From the NCBI GenBank assembly GCA_001799395.1, contig MGTJ01000109.1, forward strand, positions 1-43,216: a stretch of 43,216 bases of DNA, read 5' to 3'. Every line of letters starts with the position of its first letter. Position 1 is the first letter of the stretch. The DNA is from Desulfobacterales bacterium RIFOXYA12_FULL_46_15 (lineage in GTDB: Bacteria > Desulfobacterota > Desulfobacteria > Desulfobacterales > Desulfobacteraceae). Below, in pieces: positions 11,744 through 42,528 of the stretch. The translations under genes were made by a program, and so were the position numbers. The notes under the pieces were generated by a model that was not told the origin of the DNA, searched no databases, and worked only from the letters and a program-made list of their open reading frames with translations.

Positions 11744-11820
11744 GGCGACGTAGCTCAGCTGGTCAGAGCATGCGGCTCATATCCGCAGGGTCCGGGGTTC
11801 AAGTCCCTGCGTCGCTACCA
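11744..11820 (+). tRNA. tRNA-Met (anticodon CAT)
   Basis: A 77-nt cloverleaf with encoded CCA. The acceptor is GGCGACG/CGTCGCT with a G-U closing pair, the D arm is GCTCAGCTGGTCAGAGC, the anticodon stem TGCGG/CCGCA holds loop CTCATAT (anticodon CAT), and the T arm has TTCAAGT. The acceptor end pairs, and the anticodon stem lacks the three stacked G-C pairs of initiator tRNA, so elongator Met is favoured. A tRNA-Ile2 with lysidine-modified CAT cannot be fully excluded by eye. Confidence 0.93.
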
Positions 11821-21500: not shown

Positions 21501-22556
21501 AAAAGGCCTATGAGATGCATCACGGGTCATTTGTAATATTTCCGGAAGTTCTGAAAACGGGAAATCCTTATGGAGCATGGCAGAAAAAACAGTTTTATGC
21601 ATTTGTTTTAAAAACGGCATTAATGCCGGATCTTCTGAAAAATCCGACTTTAAAACGACCGGGTTGACAAAATAGCCTGCCACATCCTTGTATGGCAATG
21701 TCCTGCCGGACATAGGAGAGACCACAAAAATCGTATCCTGATATGAATACCGGTGCAGCAGAATACTGAAAGCAGACAGAAAAAAAGTGTAGGGGCTGAT
21801 CCCCGTTTTTTTCGACAAATTTATAATCCGGGAAGATAACCCCTTAGGAATCATTAATGTATACTGATCCCCCCTGTAATTTGAAACAGGCGGCCTTGGC
21901 TTGTCCAGGGGAAGATTGAGAACGGACGGCTGTTTACTGAGCTGTTTTTTCCAATATCGGGACAGCTTTTCTTTTTTGATTCCATGAAACCCGGCAGATT
22001 GGTATTTTATAAATTCCCCGTATCTGAAGTCTGTATCCTTCTCTTCCTGTTCATGAAGACGGCCGGTTTCAAATATGGACGAGAGATCTTCCATCATCAT
22101 GATAATGGAACCATAGTCTGCGGCAATATGATGAATGCTAAAAAAAAGGATATCATTGTTCCGGCTTTTATGAAAAAGTTTCCACCGGGATACAGGGCCG
22201 TTTTCCAGGTCAATGGGCCGGTATGTTTCTTCTTTTAAAACAGAATTCAGAAAGGCTTTGCTGAAGCCTGTACAATCCGTCTCTTCAAATTTCAGCAGGA
22301 TATCCGGATGGACTTTTTGATAAAGGTCTCCGTCATCATTTACATGATAGGTTGTTCTCAATATAGGGTGAACAGCACAAATCGTCTTTAATGCATCTTT
22401 TAAAACCATAATATCGGGGAAGCACGGGATATGCCAGGCCAGGCTGATATTGAAGGCGCATTGGTCAGGGGAAATATTTTTAACAAACCATAATGCTTTT
22501 TGACCCAAAGACAGGGGATAGATGATATCTTTTTTACAAATTTTACAGGCACTCAT
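15528..22556 (-). CDS. Hybrid NRPS-PKS megasynthase: C-A-PCP-KS-AT-ACP-TE
   Basis: 2342 residues. Condensation domain about 10-450, with HHIAADYGS at 142-150 (second His and Asp kept, the usual Gly is Tyr148). Adenylation domain about 480-970, with core YTSGTTGRPKG (632-642) and the A10 lysine Lys963. PCP Ser1021 (GGHSL). Ketosynthase 1088-1515 with Cys1259, His1394 and His1434. Acyltransferase 1610-1905 with Ser1704 in GHSLGEY and HAFH at 1800-1803, the malonyl-CoA type. ACP Ser2018 (GGDSL). Type I thioesterase 2080-2342 with Ser2156, Asp2183 and His2314. There is no KR, DH, ER or epimerase, so the line should join an acyl donor, one amino acid and one malonate and release an unreduced beta-keto product by hydrolysis or ring closure. 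All active sites look intact. The start is supported by aaagga 11 nt upstream and a promoter. No PPTase or exporter is in the window. Confidence 0.95.
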   Translation of the reverse strand: MSACKICKKDIIYPLSLGQKALWFVKNISPDQCAFNISLAWHIPCFPDIMVLKDALKTICAVHPILRTTYHVNDDGDLYQKVHPDILLKFEETDCTGFSKAFLNSVLKEETYRPIDLENGPVSRWKLFHKSRNNDILFFSIHHIAADYGSIIMMMEDLSSIFETGRLHEQEEKDTDFRYGEFIKYQSAGFHGIKKEKLSRYWKKQLSKQPSVLNLPLDKPRPPVSNYRGDQYTLMIPKGLSSRIINLSKKTGISPYTFFLSAFSILLHRYSYQDTIFVVSPMSGRTLPYKDVAGYFVNPVVLKSDFSEDPALMPFLKQMHKTVFSAMLHKDFPFSELPEILQMTRDASHRPFAQATFNWVDYEAFQKRKKPFVTVKDSGKIEWQINGMIWEQIDLRGQTDDSDLVLEILKADGNFLIHWQYNETVFNRPGMMGMANAFISLLHGMVNFPSQSVNRLPLLGNTEIKQILKGWKYKPSRFKKNACVHHWFEAQAGLRPDEIALIDGHEELTYLELNCRANQVAHYLTDLGIGPEILVGICMDRTAFTIVCLMGVLKAGAAYVPLDPQYPRDRLDFIIKDADIAFVLTQKRHRNCLPADSKNIITVEDARDVIKSKQTTNPSVAVKLSNMAYVIYTSGTTGRPKGVVIEHNSVSALFNSYSGVFSQKEMSGVLAATSLNFDPSVVDIFGTLGLGGTLILIENPLMLSALPAKDRITLISAAPSLIKALFELKAIPASVTSVGMGGEPLRQELVNDLYSLNHIKKVFNFYGPTEETVCAAYALVEPHLDHAPPLGRPMSKTRIHILDPYMQPVPEGMPGELYLGGPGLARGYLNRPELTRNRFIPNPFAKDKDCRLFKTGDLVRLLPGGDIAFIGRMDCQVKIRGFRIELGEIETIINLCPNVKESVATVSEDSSGDNILLAYVVPESGSQVTDKDIREFIRKKLPLYMMPAHITLIGMLPLTPNGKIDRNGLPKPKVQKAHPCLKTIEASQANSIKIVSDIWEDVLKLSGINIQDNFFDLGGHSLLMVSVFSKLKQHFDKEISLIDLYQYPTVYSLANFLDRSEADKRYIKKSKNGSVAVIKRYKTPHTSKIAIIGMACRYPGAAGKDEFWQNIKNGVESISDFSKQELLENGISERLIRHRHFIPRSGWLAGIDQFDADFFNITPMEARIIDPQHRIFMECAWEALEDAGIDPHRTDDITGIYAGCGQNAYYTDHLSRHRKIRDQMGDFNLMIGNSIDFLSSRIGYKLNLKGPMTTIQTACSTSMTGIHMACSGLFNGDCDIALAGGISLGNLKKGYLYREGMILSSSGQCRPFDRDASGTIPSQGVGIVVLKRLSDAINERRHIYAIIAGSAINNDGIGKAGFTAPSVTGQAEVIRSAQINAGVVPGQISFIEAHGTATNVGDPIETAALETVFSGYHLKKGSCAVGAVKANIGHTDTASGVAGVIKTALAIKHKMLPPSIHYEQPNSHIKFSDPPFYINTKLKPWTTDKLPRRAGVSSFGLGGCNAHTILEEYEDVTPSDAGEPGWHIFPISAKTRTALITAARNLKGHLEQKQYKNLADIAYTLQKGRRNFDFRTFFVADSNARAIEQLTYVIETQDHEYLLKNTRPPVVFMFTGQGSQYMNMGKDLYSREPFFKKQVDECLDIISRINAEMFNLFNKGKNIWDTNALSETAITQPALFIFEYALARLLMHWEIDPDVMIGHSLGEYVAACIAKVFSLEEALDAVVQRGLLIRELPAGKMMSVGCAKEKVKELIFGSICIAAVNTPLRTVVSGAGQDMEKFKGICKNFNIPVVPLKISHAFHSGMLDPILEKYRTVLSSFHLNPPQIPIVSSLTGTWLTKAQATDPSYWVLQMRNPVHFSDGLATLFDHYPKMAMIETGPGRTLSSLALQNPGRQRDHLVLPTVRAPGEIADDKAFLLNAVGVLWNNGLCPKWEKLHQGNPGFISLPSYPFERKRYWVEETANLPALNTGSDNEPESKPVIKFNDTVEKTVAHIWEEFLGLHNLSVQDDFFKLGGDSLLAVMMLEQLRDRFDIDLSANILISCSTIGSLARYIRDRSVSKSLKTDPRAASEYIVELKKGCLSPALFLCHPGAGHLYFYLDLVHALNIPNAIYGIEAKGLHGNDRPLESIEEIAAHHVDQIMKIQKKGPYWLGGSSFGGMVAYEAAQQLIKRGHKIEFIYMADTPGPGHMVPPVKSNAQILCRLFPNILDSAGNLEKELYGFEDDPNRQIDCIIQKAQAQNKGDMIPDRFSSDFINMIKIHVEAMRRYTPGPIMSFLMFFRANEPLEDYDAHAEMAWLPLAETGANVYTVPGNHITMNSAPNVNVMARQMKRHIRDLLNINR

Positions 22557-30312: not shown

Positions 30313-32436
30313 ATGGCTTTGAATCTCAAATCAATCGGAGAAAAGATCGGCCCCCTTACCAGGAAGTATTCCCACAAGGATGCCATCCTGTATGCCCTTG
30401 GGGTGGGTGCTGGTTTTTCCGATCTGGAATACTGCTATGAAAAGGATCTCAAAGTAATTCCAAGTTTTTCCATTGCCTCAATTTTCGACACCCTTGCAGA
30501 CTTTGCCCTTAAAGCTCAAGTAAACCTGGCCGGCATCCTGCATGGAGAGCAGGATCTGATCTTTCACAATCCCACCCCGCCCGAAGGAATGCTCACAACA
30601 AACGGCAGGATTGAGAAGATATACGACAAAGGCAAGGACAAAGGGGCTCTCCTCGTCGGAAAGAGTGAAACATGTCATGCCAACGGGGACAGTCTTTTTA
30701 CCAGTATATTCTCCCTTTTCTGCCGCCTTGACGGCGGGTTTGGCGGCGAAAATTGTCCAAGAACCGAATTCAGCTTTCCCCAAAGAGATCCCGATTTTCT
30801 GGTTACTGAAACCCCCCTGCCAGACCAGCCCCTGATCTACCGGCTTTCAGGAGATATCTTCCCCCTGCATGCCGATCCCAAGTTTGCCAGGGACTCAGGG
30901 TTTGAAAAACCGATCATGCACGGCCTTTGCACCCACGGGTTTGCCTGCAGGGCTTTGATCAGCCAACTGATCCCGGGGCAGCCTGAAAAGGCAAGGCGGA
31001 TGAAATGCCGTTTTTCCAGTCCCCTCTATCCTGGTTTTCCCATTAAAACCCTGATCTGGAAAACCGGACAGGGCAGTGCGGTATGGAAAACCGTAAATGC
31101 CCATACAAATGAGGTCATCATCACTAACGGCATTTTTGAATATGGTGATATCCCCAAGGATGAAATCCGGTTTGACGACCAGGTGGCCGTCGTAACCGGT
31201 GCCGGCTCGGGCCTGGGACGGGCCTATGCGTTGGAGCTTGCAAGGCGCGGGGCAAAGGTGGTGGTCAATGATTATGGCCTTAGCCCTGATGGTTCAGGCC
31301 ACGGTTCTTCAACCCCGGCACAGGTTGTGGTGGACGAGATAACAAAGGCCGGAGGCCGGGCAGTGGCCAATTTTGATAACGTGGCAACCCCCCAGGGGGG
31401 AGAAAATATCGTAGCCACAGCCCTGGAAGCATTCGGCACGATTGATATCCTGATCAGTAACGCCGGCATCCTGAGAGACAAGAGCTTTGTGAAAATGGCG
31501 CCCGAGTACTGGGAATCCGTCCTTAACGTCCATCTCTACGGCACTTACAATGTCACCCGGCCGGCATTCAAGGTCATGAAGGAGAAAAAATACGGCCGGA
31601 TTGTCATGACCACCTCGGCAGCCGGGCTGTTCGGCAATTTCGGCCAGGCCAACTACTCTTCTGCCAAGCTTTCCCTGGTGGGGTTGATGAACACATTAAA
31701 GCTTGAGGGAGAAAAATACGATATCAAGGTAAATACTGTGGCCCCTTTTGCTGCGTCACGCCTGACCGAGGGGATCATCCCCCCTGAAGTATTTGAAAAA
31801 TGCAAACCTGAATATGTCTCTCCCATGACCCTTTATCTATGTTCCAGGCGATGCCCTGTTACCGGCAATATTTATAATGCCGGTATGGGATTTTTTAGCC
31901 GGGCCGCCATTTTCACAGGTCCCGGGGCCGTGGTGGGTGACCAGGAGAAAATGCCGGATGCCGATGCTGTCCAGGCAAAAATAAAACAGATATCCAGTCT
32001 TAAAAATGCAAAAGAATATTTTAATCTCAACGACCAGGTCATGGATCTTTTAACCTGTCTTGACTCACCGCCTGAGGCTATAGGCCGGGACGATGAGGAT
32101 GACACAGGTTCCGGATTCAAAACGACAGATTCTGTTTTTAATGCCATGTCAGATCTGTTCAAGCCCGATGCTGCAGCAGGGATCGATGTGGTGTTCCAGT
32201 TCATTATCACGGGGAACAACGACGGGGACTGGTCCTGCACCATAAAGGAGGAGACCTGCACGGTCAGGCAGGGAAGGCATGATTGCCCCACCTGCACCCT
32301 GAAAATGGATTCACAAAATTTCATTGCCATGATGAACAAGCAACTGACCCCGATGCAGGCTTATTCGTCAGGCAAGCTGATAATTGAAGGGGATATCATG
32401 AAATCCCAGCTCATAGAGAAGCTGTTTAAACTGTAA
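30313..32436 (+). CDS. Multifunctional beta-oxidation enzyme: (R)-enoyl-CoA hydratase 2 - DHB4-type SDR - SCP2
   Basis: 707 residues from ATG 30313, which has a perfect aggagg 6 nt upstream. Hydratase 2/MaoC double hot-dog spans 1-280, with the motif RLSGDIFPLHADP carrying catalytic Asp181 and His186 and IMHGLCTHG after it. The SDR spans about 285-545: TGAGSGLGRAYALELARRGAKVVVND, then Ser435, Tyr448 and Lys452, with GNFGQANYSSAKL as in peroxisomal DHB4/MFE-2; the NNAG motif reads SNAG. An SCP2-like lipid-binding domain is about 605-705. It should hydrate trans-2-enoyl-CoA to (3R)-hydroxyacyl-CoA and oxidise it to 3-ketoacyl-CoA. The domain order is permuted relative to animal MFE-2 (SDR-hydratase-SCP2). 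Confidence 0.9.
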   Translation: MALNLKSIGEKIGPLTRKYSHKDAILYALGVGAGFSDLEYCYEKDLKVIPSFSIASIFDTLADFALKAQVNLAGILHGEQDLIFHNPTPPEGMLTTNGRIEKIYDKGKDKGALLVGKSETCHANGDSLFTSIFSLFCRLDGGFGGENCPRTEFSFPQRDPDFLVTETPLPDQPLIYRLSGDIFPLHADPKFARDSGFEKPIMHGLCTHGFACRALISQLIPGQPEKARRMKCRFSSPLYPGFPIKTLIWKTGQGSAVWKTVNAHTNEVIITNGIFEYGDIPKDEIRFDDQVAVVTGAGSGLGRAYALELARRGAKVVVNDYGLSPDGSGHGSSTPAQVVVDEITKAGGRAVANFDNVATPQGGENIVATALEAFGTIDILISNAGILRDKSFVKMAPEYWESVLNVHLYGTYNVTRPAFKVMKEKKYGRIVMTTSAAGLFGNFGQANYSSAKLSLVGLMNTLKLEGEKYDIKVNTVAPFAASRLTEGIIPPEVFEKCKPEYVSPMTLYLCSRRCPVTGNIYNAGMGFFSRAAIFTGPGAVVGDQEKMPDADAVQAKIKQISSLKNAKEYFNLNDQVMDLLTCLDSPPEAIGRDDEDDTGSGFKTTDSVFNAMSDLFKPDAAAGIDVVFQFIITGNNDGDWSCTIKEETCTVRQGRHDCPTCTLKMDSQNFIAMMNKQLTPMQAYSSGKLIIEGDIMKSQLIEKLFKL

Positions 32437-32455
32437 TGATAAGGAGAATGATACA

Positions 32456-34834
32456 ATGATCGGCATTAGTTCTTATGGCGCATATATCCCAAGGCTGAGG
32501 CTGGACCGGTCAGCCATCTACCGGAACGTGGGCTGGTTCGCCCCTGCTGTGATAGCCGTTGCACAGGGCGAACGATCCATGTGCTACTGGGATGAAGATT
32601 CGGTTACCATGGCAGTGGCAGCTTCCCGGGACTGCATCAAGGGCAAAGATAAAAAGCGCATTGACGCGATGTATATGGCTTCTACCACCATGCCCTTTGC
32701 AGATCGGCAGAACGCGGGTATTGTAGCATCCGCCCTCAACCTGCCCGAAGATATCATCACCTCTGATTTTACCGCTTCCCAGAAGGCCGGCAGCACCGCC
32801 CTGATTGCGGCTCTTGAATCGGTCAAAAGCAAGGAGCGGAACCAGATACTTGTGGCTGCGGCAGACAAGCGCGAGACCAAGAGCGCCTACTTTTATGAAA
32901 TGTGGTTCGGCGACGGTGCTGCCTCCCTCATGGTGGGAGATACGGATGTTATTGCAGAATATAAAGGATCCTATTCTGTTTCATGTGATTTTATCGATCA
33001 TTACCGGGGAAGCGGCAATGCCTTTGACTATGTCTGGGAGGAGCGCTGGGTGAGGGATGAAGGGTATGCAAAGATTATCCCCAGAGCAGTAAACGGTCTC
33101 ATGAAAAAACTCAACATTACCATGGATGACGTGGACAAGCTGGTCTATCCCTGCTTTTTCAAGCGGGACCATGGTGAGATTGCCAAAAAACTGGGCGCCG
33201 CACCTGAAAAAGTGGTGGATAACCTGCATGAAGTCTGCGGAGAGACCGGAGCGGCTCACTGCATCCTCATGTTTGTATCTGCCCTTGAACAGGCAGAACC
33301 CGGGGACGGCATTCTCATGGCAGGCTTTGGCCAGGGGTGCAACGCCCTGTTTTTCAAGGTCACGGAAAACATTAAAAAACTTGTCCCGCGACAGGGGGTC
33401 AAAACAAGTCTTGATAACAAGCTGACCACGGATAATTATCTTCGGTTTCTTATATTCAGGGATCTGATCAAGACCGAAATGGGAATCCGGGCCGAAGCAC
33501 CCACCCAGACCGCCATGACCACGCTCTGGCGCAAACGGAAAATGCTTCTCGGGCTTGTGGGCGGAAAGTGCGCTTCCTGCGGTACAGCCCAGTTTCCCAA
33601 AACCGATGTCTGCGTAAACCCGGGCTGCAATTCCGTAAAGACCCAGGCAGATCATGAATTCGCTGACACCCCTGCCAAAATCAAGACATTTACCTCAGAT
33701 CTTCTGGCCGTATCCGTGGATCCCCCCCATAACTACGGTATGATCCAGTTTGAAGGCGGGGGGCGCATGATGGCCGATTTTACAGACTGCTGTGAAGCAG
33801 ATCTCAAGGTGGGGCTGCCCATGCAGATGACCTTTAGAATAAGGAGCCGGGACAGGGAACGCGGATTTGTCAATTACTTCTGGAAGGCAACCCCGGTTCC
33901 GGGTGCTGCCCGGCAGATGGACAGGATATCCTTTCAGGACAAGGTCGCCATTGTCACCGGAGCCGGGGGCGGACTGGGGCGGGTTTACGCCCTTGAGCTT
34001 GCCAGGCGGGGAGCAAGCGTTGTTGTCAACGACTTCGGATCTGCCCCGGACGGTTCTGGCAAAGGGTCTTCTTCTCCTGCCCAGATTGTTGTGGATGAAA
34101 TAAAAGCGGCCGGTGGCCAGGCGGTAGCCAATTTTGATAACGTGGCAACCCTCAAAGGAGGTGAAAATATCGTTAAAACGGCTATGGACGCCTTTGGACG
34201 GGTGGATATTCTGGTAAACAATGCCGGTATTTTAAGGGATAAAAGTTTTGTTAAACAGGATGACAAGACCTGGAATTCCGTTCTTGATGTCCACCTTAAC
34301 GGTGCCTATTACGTGACCCGGCCGGCATTCAAGGTCATGAAGGAGCAAGGATTCGGCAGGGTCGTGATGACCACGTCTGCTGCCGGGCTTTACGGCAATT
34401 TCGGCCAGGCCAACTATTCCGCTGCCAAACTGGGGATTGTGGGGCTAATGAACACCCTGAAGATCGAAGGCGCCCAATATGACATCAAGGTCAATACCAT
34501 CGCTCCCATTGCCGCATCAAGACTGACCCAAGAGATCATGCCGCCCGAAATTTTTGAAAAGAGCAAGCCTGAATTTGTTTCCCCCATGGTTCTCTATCTT
34601 TGCAGTGACAAATGCCACGAGACCGGCCAGATTTTTAATGCCGGGCTTGGCTTTTATAACCGGGCTGCCATGGTTACGGGCGTTGGTGTAAAAATCGGAG
34701 ACGAGGGCAATCCCCCGACATTGGAGATGATCCACAAAAATTTTGAAAGGATCAACAATCTTGAAAATGCCAAAGAGATGACAGACGCCGCCACTGCCGT
34801 GTTTGCCCTTATTAATCCGTCTGCCGATGCCTGA
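32456..34834 (+). CDS. Fusion of HMG-CoA-synthase-like domain, zinc ribbon/OB (DUF35) and DHB4-type SDR
   Basis: 792 residues; the start follows aaggagaatgataca. The HMGCS/thiolase-fold domain spans 1-335 (GISSYGAYIPRLRL...). Where active synthases have an ACxAGT-type motif this protein reads TASQKAGST (106-114), and the usual His- and Asn-containing motifs read YPCFFKRDHGE (231-241) and CGETGAAH (261-268), so the site looks degenerate. A zinc ribbon with Cys372, Cys375, Cys386 and Cys391 plus an OB fold extends to about 475. A complete SDR (492-745; Ser641, Tyr654, Lys658) is paralogous to that of the preceding gene. Predicted as a CoA-ester-binding scaffold for the thiolase plus a second 3-hydroxyacyl-CoA dehydrogenase. 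Confidence 0.85.
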   Translation: MIGISSYGAYIPRLRLDRSAIYRNVGWFAPAVIAVAQGERSMCYWDEDSVTMAVAASRDCIKGKDKKRIDAMYMASTTMPFADRQNAGIVASALNLPEDIITSDFTASQKAGSTALIAALESVKSKERNQILVAAADKRETKSAYFYEMWFGDGAASLMVGDTDVIAEYKGSYSVSCDFIDHYRGSGNAFDYVWEERWVRDEGYAKIIPRAVNGLMKKLNITMDDVDKLVYPCFFKRDHGEIAKKLGAAPEKVVDNLHEVCGETGAAHCILMFVSALEQAEPGDGILMAGFGQGCNALFFKVTENIKKLVPRQGVKTSLDNKLTTDNYLRFLIFRDLIKTEMGIRAEAPTQTAMTTLWRKRKMLLGLVGGKCASCGTAQFPKTDVCVNPGCNSVKTQADHEFADTPAKIKTFTSDLLAVSVDPPHNYGMIQFEGGGRMMADFTDCCEADLKVGLPMQMTFRIRSRDRERGFVNYFWKATPVPGAARQMDRISFQDKVAIVTGAGGGLGRVYALELARRGASVVVNDFGSAPDGSGKGSSSPAQIVVDEIKAAGGQAVANFDNVATLKGGENIVKTAMDAFGRVDILVNNAGILRDKSFVKQDDKTWNSVLDVHLNGAYYVTRPAFKVMKEQGFGRVVMTTSAAGLYGNFGQANYSAAKLGIVGLMNTLKIEGAQYDIKVNTIAPIAASRLTQEIMPPEIFEKSKPEFVSPMVLYLCSDKCHETGQIFNAGLGFYNRAAMVTGVGVKIGDEGNPPTLEMIHKNFERINNLENAKEMTDAATAVFALINPSADA

Positions 34835-34892: not shown

Positions 34893-36101
34893 ATGGCAAC
34901 AGGAATTAAAGATAAAATCGCAATTATTGGTATGGGATGCACCAGGTTTGGTGAACGCTGGGATGTGGGGGCGGAGGAACTCATGGTGGAAGCCTTTGAA
35001 GAATGCATCAACGATGCCGGGCTGGAAAAAAACCAGATAGAAGCAGCCTGGCTGGGCACCTGCATGGAAGAGGTCAACGTGGGAAAGACAGCCATGCCCC
35101 TTGCCACTGCACTGAGACTGCCCATGATCCCGGTGACCCGCGTTGAAAACTACTGCGCCACCGGAACGGAAGCCTTTCGGGGTGCCTGTTATGCAGTGGC
35201 GTCCGGGGCTTATGACATCTGTCTGGCCATGGGTGTTGAAAAGCTTAAGGATACTGGTTACGGTGGGCTTCCCAACCCGGGTTCGAGTGCCGGGACCCTG
35301 ATCTGGCAATGGTGGCCCAATCTTTCGGCCCCTGGTGCCTTTGCTCAGCTTGCCAGTGCCTATACCGCCAAATACAATGTGTCCGGCCAGGACCTGAAAC
35401 AGGCCATGGCCCATATTTCAGCTAAAAGCCATGATAATGGCCTGCTCAACCCCAAGGCCCATCTTCAAAAGAAAATTACCGTGGAACAGGTCATGGCAGC
35501 ACCTATTATCGCCCATCCCCTGGGCCTTTTTGACTGCTGCGGTGTCAGTGACGGTGCTGCCTGCGCCATTGTCACCACTCCTGAAATAGCAAAAAAACTG
35601 GGAAAAAAAGATGCTGTTACGGTTAAGGCATTACAGCTTGCCCTTTCAAACGGAGAAGAGGTCGGGTTCAATGACTGGGACGCAGACCACTTCATGACCA
35701 CGAGCAAATGCAGCATCAGGGCCTACAAAGAAGCCGGCATCGAGGATCCCAGAAAGGAGATCTCCATGATGGAGGTTCATGACTGCTTTTCAATCACAGA
35801 ACTGGTGACTATGGAAGACTTGCATATTTCCGAAAGGGGAAATGCCATCAAGGATATCCTGGACGGTTTTTACGATAGAGGCGGCGGCCTGCCCTGTCAG
35901 GTTGACGGCGGGTTGAAATGTTTCGGCCATCCAATCGGTGCGTCAGGCATCAGGATGCTCTATGAGATGTACTTACAGTTGCACGGCAGGGCTGGCAATC
36001 GCCAGATAGAAAACCCTAAATATGGTCTTACGCATAATCTTGGGGGATTTCCTTTCCAGAATATCTGCAGTATTTCCATTATCGGCAAAAAAGATGCGTA
36101 A
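34893..36101 (+). CDS. SCPx-type thiolase / CoA-cleaving enzyme
   Basis: 402 residues; ribosome site aggagg. The nucleophile is Cys88 (VENYCATGTEAF), with His296 (VHDCFSITE) and His346 (CFGHPIGASG). The second catalytic Cys of classical thiolases is absent: the C-terminal motif reads THNLGGFP with Asn382. From known families, this pattern is shared with SCPx-like enzymes that act on alpha-branched or bulky substrates together with a DUF35 Zn-finger partner, such as BbsAB of toluene degradation and the aldolase Ltp2 of steroid side-chain degradation. The DUF35 domain of the upstream gene is the likely partner. Expected product: acetyl-CoA or another short acyl-CoA plus a shortened acyl-CoA. 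Confidence 0.88.
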   Translation: MATGIKDKIAIIGMGCTRFGERWDVGAEELMVEAFEECINDAGLEKNQIEAAWLGTCMEEVNVGKTAMPLATALRLPMIPVTRVENYCATGTEAFRGACYAVASGAYDICLAMGVEKLKDTGYGGLPNPGSSAGTLIWQWWPNLSAPGAFAQLASAYTAKYNVSGQDLKQAMAHISAKSHDNGLLNPKAHLQKKITVEQVMAAPIIAHPLGLFDCCGVSDGAACAIVTTPEIAKKLGKKDAVTVKALQLALSNGEEVGFNDWDADHFMTTSKCSIRAYKEAGIEDPRKEISMMEVHDCFSITELVTMEDLHISERGNAIKDILDGFYDRGGGLPCQVDGGLKCFGHPIGASGIRMLYEMYLQLHGRAGNRQIENPKYGLTHNLGGFPFQNICSISIIGKKDA

Positions 36102-36119: not shown

Positions 36120-37268
36120 ATGTTTGAACTGAACAGATCTCAAAAAGAGATACAAAATGCCGCCAGGCAGTTTGCCAAAGGCGAATTTGACAGCCACCTG
36201 GCACTTGAGCTTGAAGAAAGCCGGGAATTTCCGAAAAAGATATGGCAAAAAGCGGCAGGACTGGGCTTTGTCGGGATTCAGTTACCTGAAGAATATTCAG
36301 GCGGCGGCCTTGGTCTTGTGGAAGCATGCCTGATTGCCGAAAATTTCTGCAGGGTTGATTCCACCTTTGGAATGGCACTCACCCTAGCTGGCGCAGGGTC
36401 GGAAGCGGTAGCCCGTTTTGCCGATGCCGGGTTGAAACAGACCATTCTTCCAAAAATCTGTGAAGGTGAGCTGCTTTCAGGCATTGCCTTTTCAGAAACC
36501 GACTATGGACTTGATCTGTCATCCATTAATACCATTGCCAAGCCGGCCGGCGATACCATTCTTATCAACGGGAAAAAAACCCATGTGGCCAACCTGGGAA
36601 CCAACGGGATCTATCTTGTGCTCTGCAAAACAGAGCTTAACCAGGCCCCCCCTGAAGAAAGCCTGAGCATGGTCCTTGTCAAAGGGGACCAAAGAGGAAT
36701 GAGCATTGAGGATTCCGGAAGGAAATTCGGGGCAAACATGACAGCAAGCGCCACCATAACCTTTGACAACGTTACCGTGCCAGGATCAAATCTAGTGGGA
36801 AAAAATGGAAAAGGGTGGTCCCAGGCCGGAAAATTGCTTGATGAACTCAAAATCCTGACCGCAGCCCAGGCCCTTGGCACAGCCCAGGGAGCCCTTGACC
36901 GTGCGCTGGGACATGTCAAACAAAGGGAGCAGTTTAACCGGAAACTTGGAAGGTTCCAGATTACCAGGCACAAAATCGCACTAATGGCAACAAAAGTGGA
37001 ACTTGCACGGCTGATCACCTTTCAGGCGGCTGATATGTTTGACAAGGGCATGGCAGATAGCACCTATATCTCAATGGCAAAAATGGTTTCTGCGCGAACC
37101 GCTGTGGAGGTGGCAGATGAGGCTATCCAGCTTTTCGGAGGATACGGGTACATGAAAGAGTCACAAGTTGAGCGCTTTTTCAGGGATGCAAAGGTTGCCG
37201 AACTTTGCTTTGGCGGCCTGACAGCCATGAAGGATATGATCGGTGAAGCAGTCATCGGAAAGATATGA
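36120..37268 (+). CDS. Acyl-CoA dehydrogenase, probable non-catalytic or divergent subunit
   Basis: 382 residues with the three ACAD domains. Seen: IAFSETDYGLDL (a changed version of TEPxAGSD), GKKTHVANLG, REQFNRKLGRFQ and LFGGYGYMKESQVERFFRDAKV. The catalytic Glu of the usual YEGTSEIQ motif is missing: the sequence is ELCFGGLTAM (361-370, Phe364 at the Glu position). The alternative Glu of IVD/LCAD enzymes also appears shifted by one residue (LLDELKIL, Glu242). With the following dehydrogenase it may form a mixed tetramer like ChsE1-ChsE2. Ribosome site ccggaggaaccatc, 18 bp after the thiolase. Confidence 0.88.
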   Translation: MFELNRSQKEIQNAARQFAKGEFDSHLALELEESREFPKKIWQKAAGLGFVGIQLPEEYSGGGLGLVEACLIAENFCRVDSTFGMALTLAGAGSEAVARFADAGLKQTILPKICEGELLSGIAFSETDYGLDLSSINTIAKPAGDTILINGKKTHVANLGTNGIYLVLCKTELNQAPPEESLSMVLVKGDQRGMSIEDSGRKFGANMTASATITFDNVTVPGSNLVGKNGKGWSQAGKLLDELKILTAAQALGTAQGALDRALGHVKQREQFNRKLGRFQITRHKIALMATKVELARLITFQAADMFDKGMADSTYISMAKMVSARTAVEVADEAIQLFGGYGYMKESQVERFFRDAKVAELCFGGLTAMKDMIGEAVIGKI

Positions 37269-37312: not shown

Positions 37313-38455
37313 ATGGATATCCTCAAATTCTCCAAAGAACATGAAAAATTCCGTGAACGCCTGGCAGGGTTTCTTGCCAAAGAGGTCACCCCTTTTATGG
37401 ACCAGTGGGAAAAGGACCGGATTGTTCCCAAGAGCATCTGGAAAAAGGCCGGAAGGGCCGGTTTTCTCTGCCCGTCCGTCTCAAAGGAATATGGCGGGCT
37501 GGGAGGGGACTTCCTCTATTCGGTCATTGTTTCTGAAGAATTTTCACGAATCGTGCACAGCGGTCTTGCCGCAAGCCTTCACAGTGATGTTGTTGTCCCC
37601 TATATTGAGTCTTTCGGGTCTGAAGAACAGAAAAAAAAATACCTTCCCGGGTGTGTCTCAGGAGATATCATCACAGCCATTGCCATGACAGAACCGGATG
37701 CCGGCAGTGATCTTGCCGGCATGAAAACAACGGCTGTCGGGCAGGGCGACCAGGTGGTGATCAACGGGTCCAAGACATTCATATCCAACGGTATCAACTG
37801 CGACCTAGTGGTGCTTGCAGCCATTGATCCGGCAATTACAGACAAGCATCAGGCAGTATCCCTTTATCTGGTGGAAGACAAAACCCCTGGGTTTAAACGG
37901 GGCCGGCATCTGGATAAAATGGGATGGAACAGTCAGGACACGGCGGAACTCTTTTTTTCCGACTGCCATATCCCCAAAGCCAACCGGCTGGGAGAGGCTG
38001 GATCAGGATTTATACAGCTCGTGATGAAACTGCAGCAGGAACGACTGGTCTGTGCCATGGGCGCTGTCTTTGCTGCAGAGCGCATCATGGAATTTGCAAA
38101 TGAATACTGCAAAAAGACTATGGTGAAAGAAAAGCCCCTGAACCGGTTCCAGGCGGTTCAGTTCGCCATTGTCGAGATGACGACAGATGTCAAGCTGGGC
38201 AGGACATTTGTGGAAAAACTCTGCGCTGACCACATGGAAGGAGAAAATATCGTGATTGAAACCTCCATGGCCAAATACTGGACCACGGATATGGTCAACC
38301 GGGTTGCAGAGCGGTGCATGGATTTGTTCGGCGAGTCTGCCGTGCTCGAATCCAACATCATGGCCCGGATAAAACGGGATGCCAGGGTGATGTCCATATT
38401 TGCCGGCACCAACGAGATTATGAAAGGGATCGCAGCAAAATTTATGGGGATGTAA
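37313..38455 (+). CDS. Acyl-CoA dehydrogenase (catalytic subunit candidate)
   Basis: 380 residues. AIAMTEPDAGSDLAGMKTTA (122-141) and NGSKTFISNG are canonical FAD/substrate motifs. The C-terminal motif is IFAGTNEIMK with Ala364 where MCAD-type enzymes have Glu, but helix G carries Glu243 (QQERLVCAMGA), the base position used by isovaleryl- and long-chain acyl-CoA dehydrogenases. It is therefore predicted active, forming the alpha-beta double bond and passing electrons to ETF. No ETF genes are in the window. It sits 44 bp after the other dehydrogenase. Confidence 0.92.
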   Translation: MDILKFSKEHEKFRERLAGFLAKEVTPFMDQWEKDRIVPKSIWKKAGRAGFLCPSVSKEYGGLGGDFLYSVIVSEEFSRIVHSGLAASLHSDVVVPYIESFGSEEQKKKYLPGCVSGDIITAIAMTEPDAGSDLAGMKTTAVGQGDQVVINGSKTFISNGINCDLVVLAAIDPAITDKHQAVSLYLVEDKTPGFKRGRHLDKMGWNSQDTAELFFSDCHIPKANRLGEAGSGFIQLVMKLQQERLVCAMGAVFAAERIMEFANEYCKKTMVKEKPLNRFQAVQFAIVEMTTDVKLGRTFVEKLCADHMEGENIVIETSMAKYWTTDMVNRVAERCMDLFGESAVLESNIMARIKRDARVMSIFAGTNEIMKGIAAKFMGM

Positions 38456-38476: not shown

Positions 38477-40186
38477 ATGATCCAAAACGATGACATAAGG
38501 CCGTGGATAAAATCCTATGATAAAGGATTGGCTCCGGATATTGAGATTCCTGACAAGACCTGTGTTGACCTTCTGGAAGAAAGTATGAAGGAAAATCCGG
38601 ACAGGCCCGTAATTTACTATATGGACAAGATTTTTCGCTTCAGGGATCTGGATGATCTGTCTGCAAGATTTGCTTCTTATCTGTACAAAAAGGGAATCGG
38701 ACCTGGCAAGGTGGTGGGCATAAACCTTCCAAACATCCCCCAATATCTGATTGCCCTTTCAGGTGCGTTTCGCGCAGGGGCGACCGTAACCGGCATATCC
38801 CCCCTGTTGTCTCCCCATGAAATGGCGTATCAAATAAATAACGCCAATGTACAGGCCCTGGTGACCCTGGATGTGCTGTTCGAGAAGAATTTATTGAAAA
38901 TCAAAGACGAGGTTCCCGGACTGGAAACAGTTATCACAACAGGTGTTGGAGATTATCTTGGGCCTGCCAGGCGAATACTGGGCAGTCTGCTGGGAAAGAT
39001 TCCAAAGGGGAAATGCATGCCTATCCCTGGAAAAGATGTTTTGCGGTTTCATCATGTGTTAAAAGAAACCCGGGCCCTGCCCCCTAAAATTAAAATAAGC
39101 CCTGAGGAGACCTGTCTGATCCAGTATACCGGCGGAACAACCGGGATACCGAAAGGGACGATTCTCACCCACGCCAATATGACGGCAAACTTCACCCAGA
39201 TATCTGCATGGGTCAATTTTAACGCCGGCTGTGACGTCCTGTGCTCTGCCTTTCCGCTCTTTCACCTGGCAGGACTTATGTTTAGCATGGCAGCCATGGC
39301 CAGCCAAAATCCCCAGTGCCTGATACCGGACCCGAGAAATACCGGACATATCTGCAGGCAAATCGCAAAATACAGCCCCACTGTCATGGCAAATGTCCCG
39401 ACCCTCTACCAGATGCTTCTTGAAGAGCCTGTCTTTAAAACCCTGGATTTTTCATCAACCCGGATTCTCATATCCGGGGCAGCCCCTTTTTCCATAGAGA
39501 GTATCCACGCCCTGGAAGCTGTGGTGGGTAAAGGCAAGGTCATGGAAGTCTACGGAATGACCGAAGCCAGCCCCATCCTGACCATGAACCCTTTTCAGGG
39601 GGAAAAAAAGCCCGGGTCGGTCGGGCTTCCGGTTCACAATACCAGGATTAAGCTGGTTGACATAGAGACCGGAACCAGGGAGGTCGATTTTGATGAAGAG
39701 GGCGAAATCATTGCATCAGGTCCCCAGATCACGGGGGGATATCACAACAGGCCCGAAGAGACCGCCAATGCCCTGAGACGTTTTAAAGGATCAACCTGGT
39801 TGTATTCAGGTGATATCGGAAAAATGGACAAAGACGGCTATCTCTATATTGTCGACCGCCTTAAGGATATGGTCATTGTCGGCGGATACAAGGTTTTTTC
39901 AAGAGAGGTCGAGGAAAAACTCGGCCAGCACCCTGATGTAGAATTCTGCGCCATTGTCGGGGTCCCTGATCCTGACAGGCCGGGAAGTGAAATTGTAAAG
40001 GCCGTGATTCAAATGGCGGCAGATTCCACAAAAAAAGATGCCAAAAAACTGGAACAGGAAATCATATCTTTTTGCAAGGAAAATATGGCATCCTTCAAAG
40101 CACCGAGAATCGTAGAGATTGTCGATGAAATCCCTCTTACTTCAGTGGGAAAGGTTGACAAAAAAGCACTCAGGAAGGTAAGATGA
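38477..40186 (+). CDS. AMP-forming acyl-CoA ligase (FadD-like)
   Basis: 569 residues. ATP-binding YTGGTTGIPKG at 217-227, VYGMTEASP in the core, YSGDIGKMDKDGYLYIVDRLKDMVIVGGYKV for the hinge, and the C-terminal catalytic lysine in SVGKVDKKALRK (Lys559). Known reaction: carboxylate + ATP + CoA to acyl-CoA + AMP + PPi. As the last enzyme of the operon it should activate the entry substrate. Specificity cannot be read from the sequence; the SCP2 and SCPx parts of the operon suggest a bulky or branched acid. Ribosome site aaaaggagactttcg. Confidence 0.93.
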   Translation: MIQNDDIRPWIKSYDKGLAPDIEIPDKTCVDLLEESMKENPDRPVIYYMDKIFRFRDLDDLSARFASYLYKKGIGPGKVVGINLPNIPQYLIALSGAFRAGATVTGISPLLSPHEMAYQINNANVQALVTLDVLFEKNLLKIKDEVPGLETVITTGVGDYLGPARRILGSLLGKIPKGKCMPIPGKDVLRFHHVLKETRALPPKIKISPEETCLIQYTGGTTGIPKGTILTHANMTANFTQISAWVNFNAGCDVLCSAFPLFHLAGLMFSMAAMASQNPQCLIPDPRNTGHICRQIAKYSPTVMANVPTLYQMLLEEPVFKTLDFSSTRILISGAAPFSIESIHALEAVVGKGKVMEVYGMTEASPILTMNPFQGEKKPGSVGLPVHNTRIKLVDIETGTREVDFDEEGEIIASGPQITGGYHNRPEETANALRRFKGSTWLYSGDIGKMDKDGYLYIVDRLKDMVIVGGYKVFSREVEEKLGQHPDVEFCAIVGVPDPDRPGSEIVKAVIQMAADSTKKDAKKLEQEIISFCKENMASFKAPRIVEIVDEIPLTSVGKVDKKALRKVR

Positions 40187-40290: not shown

Positions 40291-40914
40291 ATGGCAACCC
40301 CCCTTGAAAAGGCAAGACAGCAACCCGAATCGATGAAGGCAAAAATCCTTACATCTGCCAGAAAACTTTTCGGAGAATACGGATTCCACGGAACAACCAC
40401 CCGGATGATCGCCTCAGATGTGGGGATTGACATATCCACCCTCTATTACCACTGGGGTGAAAAAGGAGATCTGTATGAAGCCGTGATCGTTGACATGAAC
40501 GACGGCATCCGGGCAAAACTCACACAGGTGGAACAGATTATCAAGGGCCGCCCCCTGGCAGAGCGCATTGAAATTGCCGTGGATGAACTGGTTGACTACC
40601 TTTTCGAACATTCTGAATTATCAAACCTCGCCATTTTCAGTTATTTTACCAAAAACCGCCACAACAGCAGCGTTGATGAACGTATCCCGGAATTCATATC
40701 CGATATTGCCTATTCCATGGATCTTTCCACAAAACGGGGAAACGCCTCACCTTTTGCAAAGATGAAGGTGCTGAGCATCATGAACGCCATCCACAATTAT
40801 GTATCAGGAGAAGCCTTTTTTCTGCCCATGCTGGGAATCACACGGGAAGAATATATCTGCCTGACCAAGGAGACGGTTAAATTTTTTACGCTATCGAATT
40901 TCGTGGATGGATAA
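40291..40914 (+). CDS. TetR-family transcriptional regulator
   Basis: 207 residues. The N-terminal helix-turn-helix (about 15-62: ILTSARKLFGEYGFHGTTTRMIASDVGIDISTLYYHWGEKGDLYEAV) is typical TetR/AcrR; the C-terminal half is a helical ligand and dimer domain. It lies 104 bp after the CoA ligase in the same direction and is probably a local repressor of the beta-oxidation operon responding to an acyl-CoA or the free acid, as FadR/PaaR-type TetR proteins do. Operator sites were not convincingly found upstream of 30313. Confidence 0.88.
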   Translation: MATPLEKARQQPESMKAKILTSARKLFGEYGFHGTTTRMIASDVGIDISTLYYHWGEKGDLYEAVIVDMNDGIRAKLTQVEQIIKGRPLAERIEIAVDELVDYLFEHSELSNLAIFSYFTKNRHNSSVDERIPEFISDIAYSMDLSTKRGNASPFAKMKVLSIMNAIHNYVSGEAFFLPMLGITREEYICLTKETVKFFTLSNFVDG

Positions 40915-41204: not shown

Positions 41205-41226
41205 CAAAAAAGCAAGGGGGGTGACT

Positions 41227-42528
41227 ATGGGGGTAAACTTCACAGAAGGCAGGATAAACAATTTTAAATGTCCACCGAATAAAAAACAAATTTTCTTATG
41301 GGATTCCGACGTAAAAGGTCTTGGACTGCGAGCGACACCCGGAGCAAAAGTCTTTATCTTTCAAGGACGATTAAACGGAAAAAGCTTCCGGTTCAAGATC
41401 GGGGATTCGCGGACATGGCTACTGGATGCCGTTAGAAAAGAGGCTCGGAGAATACAGTCTCTTATAGATAAAGGCATAGACCCCCGACAAGACAAACAAG
41501 ATCAGTTACAAAAAACAGAAGATCGTCAGCAGGCCGAAAGCTGCCAGGGCATAACAGTGAAAGAGGTCTGGGATATTTATATTGAAAAACGGCGCAATGC
41601 AGAAAAAAACGGATGGGGCGCAAGGCATTACCTGGACCACATTAAGATTTCACAGCCAGGAGGAACCCCTGTTCTTAAAGGTAAAAGACTGACAAAGGCG
41701 GGACCATTGGCGGCATTAATGCCGTTGAAGCTTTCTGATATCACCCAGGAGGTAATTGAGGATTGGTTAAAGACAGAAGGCAAAAACAGAGGGGCCAGGG
41801 CCAGACTCGCTTTCTCTTTGTTGCGAGCTTTCTTAAAATGGTGTGAATCTGAAAAGGAATACAGAGGGTCAATACATCCAAACGTATGCAGCAGCAAATT
41901 AAAAAAAGAGTATATTCCGAAAATGAAAACCAAAGATGACTGTCTGCAAAAAGAACAATTGCAGGTATGGTTCCAGGCGGTTCAGGGGCTAAACAACAAG
42001 ATCATATCAGCATACCTTCAGAGCTTACTATTAACCGGGGCCAGGCGTGAAGAATTGGCGGGACTTAAATGGGAAGATCTTAATTTTCAATGGCATTCCA
42101 TGACAATCCACGACAAAGTAGAAGGGGAAAGGACAATTCCCTTGACACCATATGTATCCTTCCTTCTTGCAGCACTACCACGGAAAAATGAATATGTTTT
42201 TTATTCACAGACGGCAGCAGATCATAAAATATCAGAACCCCGACACGCACACAACAGAGCAATCAATGTTGCAGGAATCGATCATCTTACCATCCATGGG
42301 TTAAGACGGTCTTTTGGGACCCTTTCAGAATGGGTTGAATGCCCGGTTGGCGTTGTCGCACAGATAATGGGTCACAAACCTTCAGCTATTGCAGAAAAGC
42401 ATTACCGCCGGCGACCTCTGGACCTGCTGCGGATGTGGCACACAAAAATTGAGAAATTTATCCTGGACCAGGCAGGCATTGCACAACCAGAGCCTGGCCA
42501 GACTGGATTGAAAGTAGTAGGCGAATAG
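41227..42528 (+). CDS. Tyrosine site-specific integrase (DUF4102 arm domain)
   Basis: 433 residues from ATG 41227, which has a gggggg tract 6 nt upstream; a GTG two codons earlier is possible. The N-terminal arm-binding domain is about 1-90 (KGLGLRATPGAKVFIFQGRLNGKSFRFKIGD), the core-binding helical domain about 100-220, and the catalytic domain carries Arg (TGARREELAGLKW), Lys (HDKVEGERTIPL), the HGLRRSFGT box, MGHKPSAIAEKHY and the Tyr nucleophile in that last motif. Family knowledge: P4-type island integrases that use tRNA genes, agreeing with the adjacent tRNA-Arg fragment. Confidence 0.95.
   Translation: MGVNFTEGRINNFKCPPNKKQIFLWDSDVKGLGLRATPGAKVFIFQGRLNGKSFRFKIGDSRTWLLDAVRKEARRIQSLIDKGIDPRQDKQDQLQKTEDRQQAESCQGITVKEVWDIYIEKRRNAEKNGWGARHYLDHIKISQPGGTPVLKGKRLTKAGPLAALMPLKLSDITQEVIEDWLKTEGKNRGARARLAFSLLRAFLKWCESEKEYRGSIHPNVCSSKLKKEYIPKMKTKDDCLQKEQLQVWFQAVQGLNNKIISAYLQSLLLTGARREELAGLKWEDLNFQWHSMTIHDKVEGERTIPLTPYVSFLLAALPRKNEYVFYSQTAADHKISEPRHAHNRAINVAGIDHLTIHGLRRSFGTLSEWVECPVGVVAQIMGHKPSAIAEKHYRRRPLDLLRMWHTKIEKFILDQAGIAQPEPGQTGLKVVGE

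What the first reader, a model, noticed from the sequence alone, without database searches (positions are those of the whole stretch)
30313..34834. A peroxisomal-type MFE-2 apparently split over two proteins that each carry one of two paralogous SDR modules
Two consecutive genes end or continue in DHB4-like SDRs with the same unusual GNFGQANYSxAKL active-site stretch. One is hydratase2-SDR-SCP2, the other HMGCS-like-zinc ribbon-SDR. Fungal MFE-2 (Fox2) is known to carry two tandem SDR domains that pair with each other plus a hydratase; here the two SDRs sit in different polypeptides, so SDR-SDR pairing could dock the hydratase protein onto the thiolase-scaffold protein. Toluene degraders also use a paired-paralogue SDR (BbsC-BbsD). 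The pairing itself is inference.
Basis: partly seen in the sequence, partly recalled or inferred. Interest (0 to 1): 0.82.

Follow-up and report, generated by a model that had tools for sequence, protein, structure and literature searches.

The report
Duplicated dehydrogenase bridging hydratase and thiolase scaffold
Two neighbouring genes of sulfate-reducing bacteria each carry a near-copy of the same fat-breaking enzyme part, one fused to the previous enzyme of the pathway and one fused to the scaffold of the next, and the copies appear to keep overwriting each other except in one small region, which suggests, without proof, a shared assembly line for breaking down fatty acids.

Summary
Gene A (30313-32436) is hydratase2-SDR-SCP2; gene B (32456-34834) is HMGCS-like-DUF35-SDR; a thiolase follows. 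Both SDRs are DHB4/MFE-2 type, 67% identical, with intact catalytic residues. The pair is no local oddity: of 123 distinct B homologues (searches in the window's phylum, plus 80 named loci), 113 of the 114 with upstream sequence have an MFE-2-type SDR frame just upstream. Most B proteins end in an extra SCP2 domain that the window copy lacks, so the unit is a duplicated SDR-SCP2 module, not a split MFE-2. B's HMGCS part has lost its catalytic residues, like PhlA of PhlABC: B plus thiolase looks like a PhlABC-type scaffold carrying a dehydrogenase. The two SDR cores show concerted evolution within operons, while their C-terminal subdomains stay distinct; in human MFE-2 that part gives dimer contacts and lies near the substrate. 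This fits co-assembly, but also two homodimers with different substrate preference. Covariation at a mapped contact is negative, the subdomains of A and B co-vary only weakly, and five genomes keep A without B's SDR. No genome was seen to have B without A. SDR-SDR docking remains plausible, unproven.

The parts
30313..32436 (+). Gene A: MFE-2-like protein, hydratase 2 - SDR - SCP2, 707 aa
   Evidence: Pfam; PDB sequence hits; AF2 model mean pLDDT 78.8, pTM 0.48; Foldseek
30313..31152 (+). Hydratase-2 part of A (double hot-dog). Invariant Glu43, Asp181, His186; Phe183 where stand-alone hydratases have Asn
   Evidence: D, H and E 115 of 115, F 110 of 115; Foldseek to 1s9c. That Glu43 is the human catalytic Glu is recalled, not tested
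31162..32028 (+). SDR-A (DHB4 type), Ser435 Tyr448 Lys452
31849..32010 (+). C-terminal subdomain of SDR-A (about human MFE-2 229-282), the region that escapes homogenisation
   Evidence: boundaries approximate
32110..32433 (+). SCP2 domain of A
   Evidence: Pfam (617-706)
32456..34834 (+). Gene B: HMGCS-like - DUF35 - SDR, 792 aa (most homologues end in a further SCP2, open frames about 910-950 aa)
   Evidence: AF2 mean pLDDT 76.1, pTM 0.63; Foldseek
32456..33460 (+). HMGCS-like pseudoenzyme part of B: Cys position is Gln109, His position Pro, Glu position Thr
   Evidence: alignment to 6esq and PhlA; 0 of 120 fused homologues have Cys there
33518..33901 (+). DUF35 (zinc ribbon + OB fold) of B, Cys372/375/386/391
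   Evidence: Pfam; four Cys in 121 of 121
33917..34801 (+). SDR-B (DHB4 type), Ser641 Tyr654 Lys658
34610..34771 (+). C-terminal subdomain of SDR-B (about human 229-282), distinct from A
   Evidence: boundaries approximate
34893..36101 (+). SCPx/BbsB-like thiolase, expected partner of B's DUF35
   Evidence: NCBIfam PRK06157 706.9 bits over cut-off 403; active Cys and His in 140 of 140
36120..37268 (+). acyl-CoA dehydrogenase 1
   Evidence: Pfam
37313..38455 (+). acyl-CoA dehydrogenase 2
   Evidence: Pfam
38477..40186 (+). AMP-forming acyl-CoA ligase
   Evidence: Pfam
40291..40914 (+). TetR-type regulator
   Evidence: Pfam

Best explanation
The operon encodes a full beta-oxidation cycle through (3R)-hydroxyacyl-CoAs, built as a multienzyme assembly. 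Protein B uses its dead HMGCS domain and its DUF35 domain to hold the thiolase, as PhlA and PhlB hold PhlC, and carries a dehydrogenase (SDR). Protein A carries the (R)-hydratase, a second copy of that dehydrogenase and an SCP2 domain. The two SDR-SCP2 modules are paralogues whose catalytic core is kept alike by gene conversion within each operon, while the C-terminal subdomain is kept different. I think it most likely that A and B co-assemble through SDR-SDR dimerisation, so that hydration, dehydrogenation and thiolysis happen in one particle. Shown: domain content, intact SDR and thiolase residues, lost HMGCS residues, conserved A-B-thiolase order, concerted evolution with a divergent island. 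Inferred by homology: the B-thiolase complex. Inferred and open: A:B pairing, any hand-over of intermediates, stereochemistry and substrate.
For: Of 123 distinct B, 102 have full A upstream on the same strand (gap under 1600 bases), 11 have an SDR(-SCP2) frame without hydratase upstream (6 real, Smithellaceae and kin; 5 cut by contig ends), 9 have at most 285 bases upstream, 1 (L222) has A elsewhere in the genome; thiolase downstream in 109 of 112 with room. In the order, listed rows give B in 102 of 389 genomes, 91 of them with A; the other 11 have B cut off at a contig end, two of these with the tail of A still visible. SCP2 in A/B: both 60, only B 18, only A 10, neither 0 of 88. Same-operon A/B SDR identity 0.732 against 0.690 between operons; 0 of 5000 permutations reach it. 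A/B-discriminating columns: 17 of 56 in the C-terminal subdomain, 1 of 224 before it; same-operon silent sites 0.554 core, 0.450 C-terminal, 0.500 SCP2. Human MFE-2 domains are active as dimers, with contacts in that C-terminal part (PMC3538638, passages). DUF35 bridges HMGCS-like and thiolase subunits in PhlABC and the archaeal complex (PMC6392133, passages; PMC12329534, passages).
Against: Five genomes have A without B's SDR: G306 and G128 (no B found), G229 (B deleted), G036 (frameshifted remnant of B), G173 (pieces of a B-like HMGCS-DUF35 that ends before the thiolase without SDR). In G306 and G128 the lone A keeps mostly A-type residues in the island, so the island does not need B as partner. 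The core, including the dimer helices, is nearly the same in A and B, so nothing there forbids homodimers. Residue pair 232-273', an inter-subunit contact in human MFE-2, shows no significant association within A, within B, or across (Fisher p 0.47, 0.47, 0.21, 0.08); B and stand-alone SDRs keep the human-like acid/aromatic pair while A mostly has Val with Leu/Met/Trp/Ile. Partial mirror-tree correlation of the two C-terminal subdomains is weak (0.13), below B subdomain-thiolase (0.41) and DUF35-thiolase (0.47). Tandem homologous segments can convert and operon genes can stay together without binding. In Shy-Sal long flexible linkers were judged inconsistent with direct channelling (PMC12329534, passage).
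Confidence: 0.45

Rival explanations
1. Two separate homodimeric dehydrogenases with different substrate range. A:A (with the hydratase) and B:B (on the thiolase scaffold) form separately; the C-terminal subdomains differ because they help shape the acyl pocket, as the two SDRs of fungal Fox2 differ in chain-length preference (recalled). Co-occurrence reflects the shared pathway only.
For: The part that differs also holds residues described as important for substrate binding in human MFE-2 (PMC3538638, passages). B's subdomain co-varies with the thiolase (partial r 0.41) more than with A's subdomain (0.13), as a shared acyl substrate would give. Five genomes keep A without B's SDR, and lone A keeps its A-type island in G306 and G128. 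Both SDRs have intact catalytic residues.
Against: No genome with B was seen to lack A where the assembly allows the question, and Smithellaceae and kin keep an SDR(-SCP2) gene in A's place beside B even without the fused hydratase. At least one SCP2 per pair is kept in 88 of 88, though about two double losses are all that chance would give.
Confidence: 0.38
2. No physical or functional coupling beyond the operon: gene conversion is a by-product of two similar segments about 2.8 kb apart, the C-terminal segment merely evolves fast, and the adjacency is ordinary operon conservation.
For: Conversion needs only proximity and similarity; G229 (L189) looks like the same recombination going to a deletion that leaves one hydratase-SDR-SCP2 gene beside the thiolase. 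The C-terminal segment is poorly conserved also among A and among B.
Against: The divergent segment is flanked by homogenised core and homogenised SCP2: less alike than both in 62 of 62 loci that have both SCP2, and A and B keep characteristic residues there, such as Tyr237 in A (113 of 115) and Asn277 in B (110 of 120). The SDR duplication is kept over many families.
Confidence: 0.17

Closest known systems
Fungal MFE-2 / Fox2 (PDB 2et6, Candida tropicalis)
   Same: Two paralogous DHB4-type SDRs plus a hydratase 2 in one pathway; 2et6 is the first sequence hit for both A and B
   Different: In Fox2 both SDRs are in one chain; here each is in its own protein, one fused to a PhlA/PhlB-like scaffold. 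The tree does not pair A with one Fox2 SDR and B with the other: A and B are closest to each other and to bacterial stand-alone SDRs (the Fox2 rows are long branches, their place is unsure)
Animal MFE-2 / D-bifunctional protein (1zbq, 1gz6, 3oml, 1s9c)
   Same: SDR, hydratase 2 and SCP2 in one chain (A)
   Different: Domain order hydratase-SDR-SCP2 instead of SDR-hydratase-SCP2 (order recalled; PMC3538638 states SCP-2L is C-terminal after the hydratase); Asn to Phe two residues after the catalytic Asp in 110 of 115
PhlABC / archaeal thiolase-HMGCS-DUF35 complex (5m3k, 5mg5, 6esq, 6et9)
   Same: HMGCS-fold subunit, DUF35, thiolase; HMGCS part without catalytic residues as in PhlA
   Different: HMGCS and DUF35 are one chain and carry an SDR (and usually SCP2)
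BbsAB and BbsCD of toluene degradation
   Same: DUF35-bearing thiolase and a paralogous SDR pair in one pathway
   Different: BbsCD has inactive subunits (title of the paper cited in PMC10818641, seen); here both SDRs look active; the bbs genes are separate genes as named there
ChsH1-ChsH2-Ltp2 and Shy-Sal
   Same: A DUF35 domain fused to the enzyme of the preceding step docks it on a thiolase-fold enzyme (abstract and passages)
   Different: There the fused enzyme is the hydratase; here it is the dehydrogenase, and the hydratase sits on A
Unfused operon in the same genome (contig C88, locus L025)
   Same: Two ACADs, HMGCS-DUF35, thiolase, SDR, hydratase 2, ligase
   Different: SDR and hydratase are separate genes; hydratase has GDKNPLH

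Membership tests
MFE-2 (D-bifunctional protein), for A | DHB4-type (3R) SDR with Ser-Tyr-Lys | tested here: met
   115 of 115 A
MFE-2 (D-bifunctional protein), for A | hydratase 2 double hot-dog fold with Asp/His dyad | tested here: met
   Pfam, Foldseek, Asp and His 115 of 115
MFE-2 (D-bifunctional protein), for A | hydratase-2 signature Asn (GDxNPLH; signature recalled) | tested here: not met
   Phe in 110 of 115, Asn in 3
MFE-2 (D-bifunctional protein), for A | domain order SDR-hydratase-SCP2 of animal MFE-2 | tested here: not met
   order is hydratase-SDR-SCP2
MFE-2 (D-bifunctional protein), for A | (R)-specific hydratase and dehydrogenase activity | not testable with these tools
   needs assay
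Fox2-type paired SDRs | two SDRs in one polypeptide | tested here: not met
   no frame with two SDRs was listed
Fox2-type paired SDRs | SDRs form a pseudo-heterodimer | not testable with these tools
   no complex prediction available; covariation at one contact not significant, mirror-tree weak
PhlABC-like HMGCS/DUF35/thiolase complex, for B + thiolase | HMGCS-fold part | tested here: met
PhlABC-like HMGCS/DUF35/thiolase complex, for B + thiolase | DUF35 with four zinc cysteines | tested here: met
   121 of 121
PhlABC-like HMGCS/DUF35/thiolase complex, for B + thiolase | thiolase encoded next door with active Cys/His | tested here: met
   109 of 112 with room; 140 of 140
PhlABC-like HMGCS/DUF35/thiolase complex, for B + thiolase | physical complex | not testable with these tools
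   needs pull-down or structure
Active HMG-CoA synthase, for B | catalytic Cys, His, Glu | tested here: not met
   0 of 120 have Cys; His position Pro in 119, Glu position Thr in 119 of 120
BbsCD-type SDR with pseudoenzyme subunit | one of the two SDRs inactive | tested here: not met
   Ser/Tyr/Lys intact in 115 of 115 A and 120 of 120 B

The most novel reading that the evidence does not exclude
A bacterial trifunctional particle for the (R)-pathway of beta-oxidation: two SDR-SCP2 modules, held alike by gene conversion in their catalytic core but forced to stay different in the C-terminal subdomain, form an A:B heterodimer that docks the (R)-hydratase onto a PhlABC-type thiolase scaffold. The divergent subdomain is the pairing code, and gene conversion keeps the two halves compatible while selection keeps them from merging.
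Probability: 0.3. Interest if true: 0.78.

Novelty: new variant of a known kind. Interest (0 to 1): 0.56.

Why it matters
It links two known building principles, MFE-2 and the DUF35-thiolase scaffold, through a repeated dehydrogenase, and offers a genetic test case for how a paralogous enzyme pair stays similar enough to share a fold yet distinct enough not to be interchangeable. It may also give a role (scaffold, not synthase) to HMGCS-like genes in degradation clusters, one of which was left unassigned in the estradiol cluster of Novosphingobium (PMC7793797, passages; I did not check whether that gene carries a DUF35). Named hosts include Desulfosarcina alkanivorans and D. widdelii and MAGs of the Syntrophus/Smithella group.

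Tried and rejected
Rejected: MFE-2 split over two proteins (A is complete in itself; B is a second module copy). Rejected: a KSQ-like decarboxylase role for the Cys-to-Gln change in HMGCS, because the position is Gln in only 90 of 120 and Leu in 21, and the unfused relatives have various residues. Rejected: BbsCD-type pseudoenzyme pair. Rejected: A and B SDRs as two clean sister clades; in several loci A and B of one operon group together (quick tree of 104 of 278 rows, SH-aLRT only; 31 of 101 inner branches open). Not significant: covariation at contact 232-273; contact 243-253 was only tabulated. Weak control: ACAD/ACADb same-operon against cross-operon identity 0.258 and 0.252, n=18, too distant a pair to rule out a composition effect by itself; the silent-site contrast within the same genes is the better control. 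Found nothing on this fusion or operon: literature searches (open-licence papers only, listings read; this does not show that it is unpublished). Plasmid collection: 59 records with HMGCS-DUF35 relatives, none covering 80% of B. The structure models are single chains and say nothing on A:B.

Full report
What is there. The window holds a plus-strand run of A (30313-32436), B (32456-34834), thiolase (34893-36101), two acyl-CoA dehydrogenases, an acyl-CoA ligase and a TetR regulator. A is hydratase 2 - SDR - SCP2; B is HMGCS-like - DUF35 - SDR. The SDRs are 67% identical and both proteins find Candida Fox2 (2et6) first in the PDB by sequence. The shared active-site stretch is the signature of the DHB4/MFE-2 family, not a peculiarity of this pair.

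How widespread. In 389 genomes of the same order the listed rows give B (whole or cut) in 102 and A in 101, both in 91 (read off by hand); four more genomes have A cut at a contig end (G038, G142, G196, G312). The 11 genomes with B only have B cut off at a contig end; in G275 and G329 the tail of A is still visible (coordinates, contig lengths). The 10 genomes with A only: G157 has a piece of B beside A; G320, G356 and G363 have A at a contig end; G355 has a piece of B on another contig; the other five are real departures. G306 (one contig) and G128 show no B at all; in G229 A is directly followed by the thiolase; G036 has a frameshifted remnant of B; G173 has pieces of a B-like HMGCS-DUF35 gene that stops before the thiolase without an SDR. 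In an even draw of 395 genomes of the phylum, 19 have full-length B at E up to 1e-150. These genome searches were confined to the window's phylum. In the named collection the best 80 of 172 relatives are titled Desulfobacterales, Desulfobacteraceae, Syntrophaceae, Smithellaceae, Desulfomonile and the like, or only Deltaproteobacteria, Proteobacteria or Thermodesulfobacteriota. Of 26 sampled genomes of the window's genus only 2 have B.

Order of genes and domains. Of 123 distinct B, 102 have A upstream on the same strand, 11 have an SDR frame without hydratase upstream, 9 have at most 285 bases upstream, and 1 (L222, genome G183) has A elsewhere in the genome. Six of the 11 are real: in Smithellaceae and kin an SDR-SCP2 or SDR gene without hydratase stands before B; the other five are cut by contig ends. 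The thiolase follows in 109 of 112 with room. Among 88 adjacent pairs with complete frames, SCP2 is in both proteins in 60, in B only in 18, in A only in 10 (the window's state), in neither in 0. Independent losses would give about two double losses, so this is suggestive only. In two loci HMGCS is split off from DUF35-SDR-SCP2 (L152, L153). The same genome has a second operon with the same kinds of enzymes unfused (L025).

What the parts can do. SDR Ser/Tyr/Lys: 115 of 115 in A, 120 of 120 in B. Hydratase Asp, His and a Glu: 115 of 115, but the Asn of the usual motif is Phe in 110 of 115, whereas three of the four stand-alone hydratases in the loci show Asn (the fourth gave no motif match). 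HMGCS: the Cys position is never Cys (Gln 90, Leu 21 of 120), His is replaced by Pro in 119 and Glu by Thr in 119 of 120. DUF35: four Cys in 121 of 121. Thiolase: Cys and His in 140 of 140 (all). PhlA likewise lacks the Cys and Glu, and PhlB, a DUF35 protein, mediates its binding to the thiolase-like PhlC (PMC6392133, passages). So B is best read as scaffold plus dehydrogenase.

Models. AF2 gives mean pLDDT 78.8 (pTM 0.48) for A and 76.1 (pTM 0.63) for B. Foldseek matches the SDRs to human and rat DHB4, the hydratase to 1s9c, and the HMGCS part to PhlABC and 6esq; TM-scores by target length are about 0.75-0.88 for these. The match of B's SDR to DHB4 has a high rmsd (9.4-9.6 A over 296 columns), against 4.0 A for A, so B's model is poor in part, and its C-terminal SDR segments have low pLDDT. 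The tool folds single chains only.

Concerted evolution. The SDR tree does not separate A from B cleanly: in L169, L172, L279, L126 and L140 the A and B of one operon group together (SH-aLRT 94-99). Over 88 loci the same-operon A/B identity is 0.732, cross-operon A/B 0.690, A/A 0.719, B/B 0.710; no permutation of 5000 reached the observed mean. Own B is the closest B for A in 17 of 88, median rank 6, and A is closer to its own B than to any other A in 8, so the effect is partial and strong only in some lineages. The longest exact DNA match is up to 98 bases within an operon and at most 38 in 400 cross-operon A/B pairs (59 in 400 A/A pairs). SCP2 behaves alike: 0.678 against 0.601, n=59 (all). 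Gene conversion between the two modules is the natural reading.

The island. In human numbering the same-operon excess is present in residues 5-200, small in 201-228 and absent in 229-300. Columns that tell A from B (divergence above 0.2) are 17 of 56 after residue 228 and 1 of 224 before it (related sequences, so not independent). Four-fold degenerate sites, same operon: core 0.554, C-terminal subdomain 0.450, SCP2 0.500; core above C-terminal in 70 of 95 loci, Wilcoxon p 2.7e-7. In all 62 loci with both SCP2 the subdomain is less alike than both its neighbours in amino acids; general fast evolution of this segment contributes, since A/A and B/B are also low there. In L169 the silent-site counts are 109 of 120, 5 of 15 and 38 of 47 for core, subdomain and SCP2. 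In human MFE-2 this part gives dimer contacts (E232-W273', W249-W249') and holds residues near the substrate (PMC3538638, passages). Mapped contact positions are more A/B-divergent than random columns (mean 0.106 against 0.057; 96% of random draws lower), while the two helices usually used in SDR dimers (recalled) are below average (0.034 and 0.020).

Does it mean pairing? The island is where a pairing code would sit, but also where substrate preference would sit. B and stand-alone SDRs mostly keep an acid at 232 and Trp or Phe at 273; A mostly has Val and Leu/Met/Trp/Ile. Association of 232 with 273 is not significant within A, within B or across. The lone A of G306 and G128 keep mostly A-type residues in the island although no B is there, which speaks against the island serving A:B pairing alone. 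Mirror-tree partial correlations, 77 loci: A core-B core 0.53, DUF35-thiolase 0.47 (partners in solved complexes), HYD2-HMGCS 0.46 (not expected to touch, so shared history is not fully removed), B subdomain-thiolase 0.41, HYD2-A core 0.30, A core-thiolase 0.28, A subdomain-thiolase 0.21, A subdomain-B subdomain 0.13 with permutation p about 0.01. So the better signal ties B's subdomain to the thiolase, which fits shared substrate or contact. G229 looks like a natural deletion: its single gene has B-like residues at most island positions and a SCP2 whose nearest match is a B SCP2 (0.71 against 0.66 for the nearest A; the means are equal, 0.58).

Verdict. Anatomy, conservation and the scaffold reading are solid; concerted evolution is well supported. 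A:B docking is plausible (about 0.45) against separate homodimers with different preference (0.38). The substrate is unknown; hosts with alkane-degrader or syntroph names and an SCPx-like thiolase suggest long or branched acyl chains (inference). No paper describing the fusion was found in the held library.

Noticed in passing
window 30853-30870 (A residues 181-186): In the fused hydratase the Asn of the GDxNPLH motif is Phe in 110 of 115 homologues while Asp and His are invariant; the stand-alone hydratase of the same genome has Asn. May mark a changed substrate or activity.
   Followed up: partly
L025 (same genome, contig C88): A parallel unfused operon with two ACADs, HMGCS-DUF35, thiolase, SDR, hydratase 2 and ligase.
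   Followed up: partly
L189 (G229): Probable deletion by recombination between the two SDRs, leaving one hydratase-SDR-SCP2 gene directly before the thiolase.
   Followed up: partly
L188 and L303 (G173, same genus as G229): Pieces of a B-like HMGCS-DUF35 gene that ends before the thiolase without an SDR, in a genome with a full gene A.
   Followed up: partly
L154 (G036): Gene B reduced to a frameshifted remnant of its HMGCS part beside an intact gene A.
   Followed up: no
L295-L300 (G038, G142, G158, G196, G312): Assemblies break inside the SDR core of this operon in five genomes, as would happen if the A and B cores were near-identical repeats.
   Followed up: no
window 41221-42528: Tyrosine integrase with an Arm-DNA-binding domain just downstream of the operon's TetR gene; no tRNA beside it (the one tRNA found is at 11744-11820). 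The operon's B gene is in only 2 of 26 sampled genomes of the genus, so lateral gain is possible.
   Followed up: no
window 15528-22556 (-) and 14170-15207 (-): A 2342-aa hybrid NRPS-PKS (condensation, adenylation, KS, AT, carriers, thioesterase) beside a KAS III gene and a TonB receptor: a compact biosynthetic cluster.
   Followed up: no
plasmid records: HMGCS-DUF35 relatives, several annotated beside acetyl-CoA acetyltransferases, in Sphingobium, Sphingomonas, Variovorax and others; none of 59 records covers 80% of B, so no SDR fusion there.
   Followed up: no
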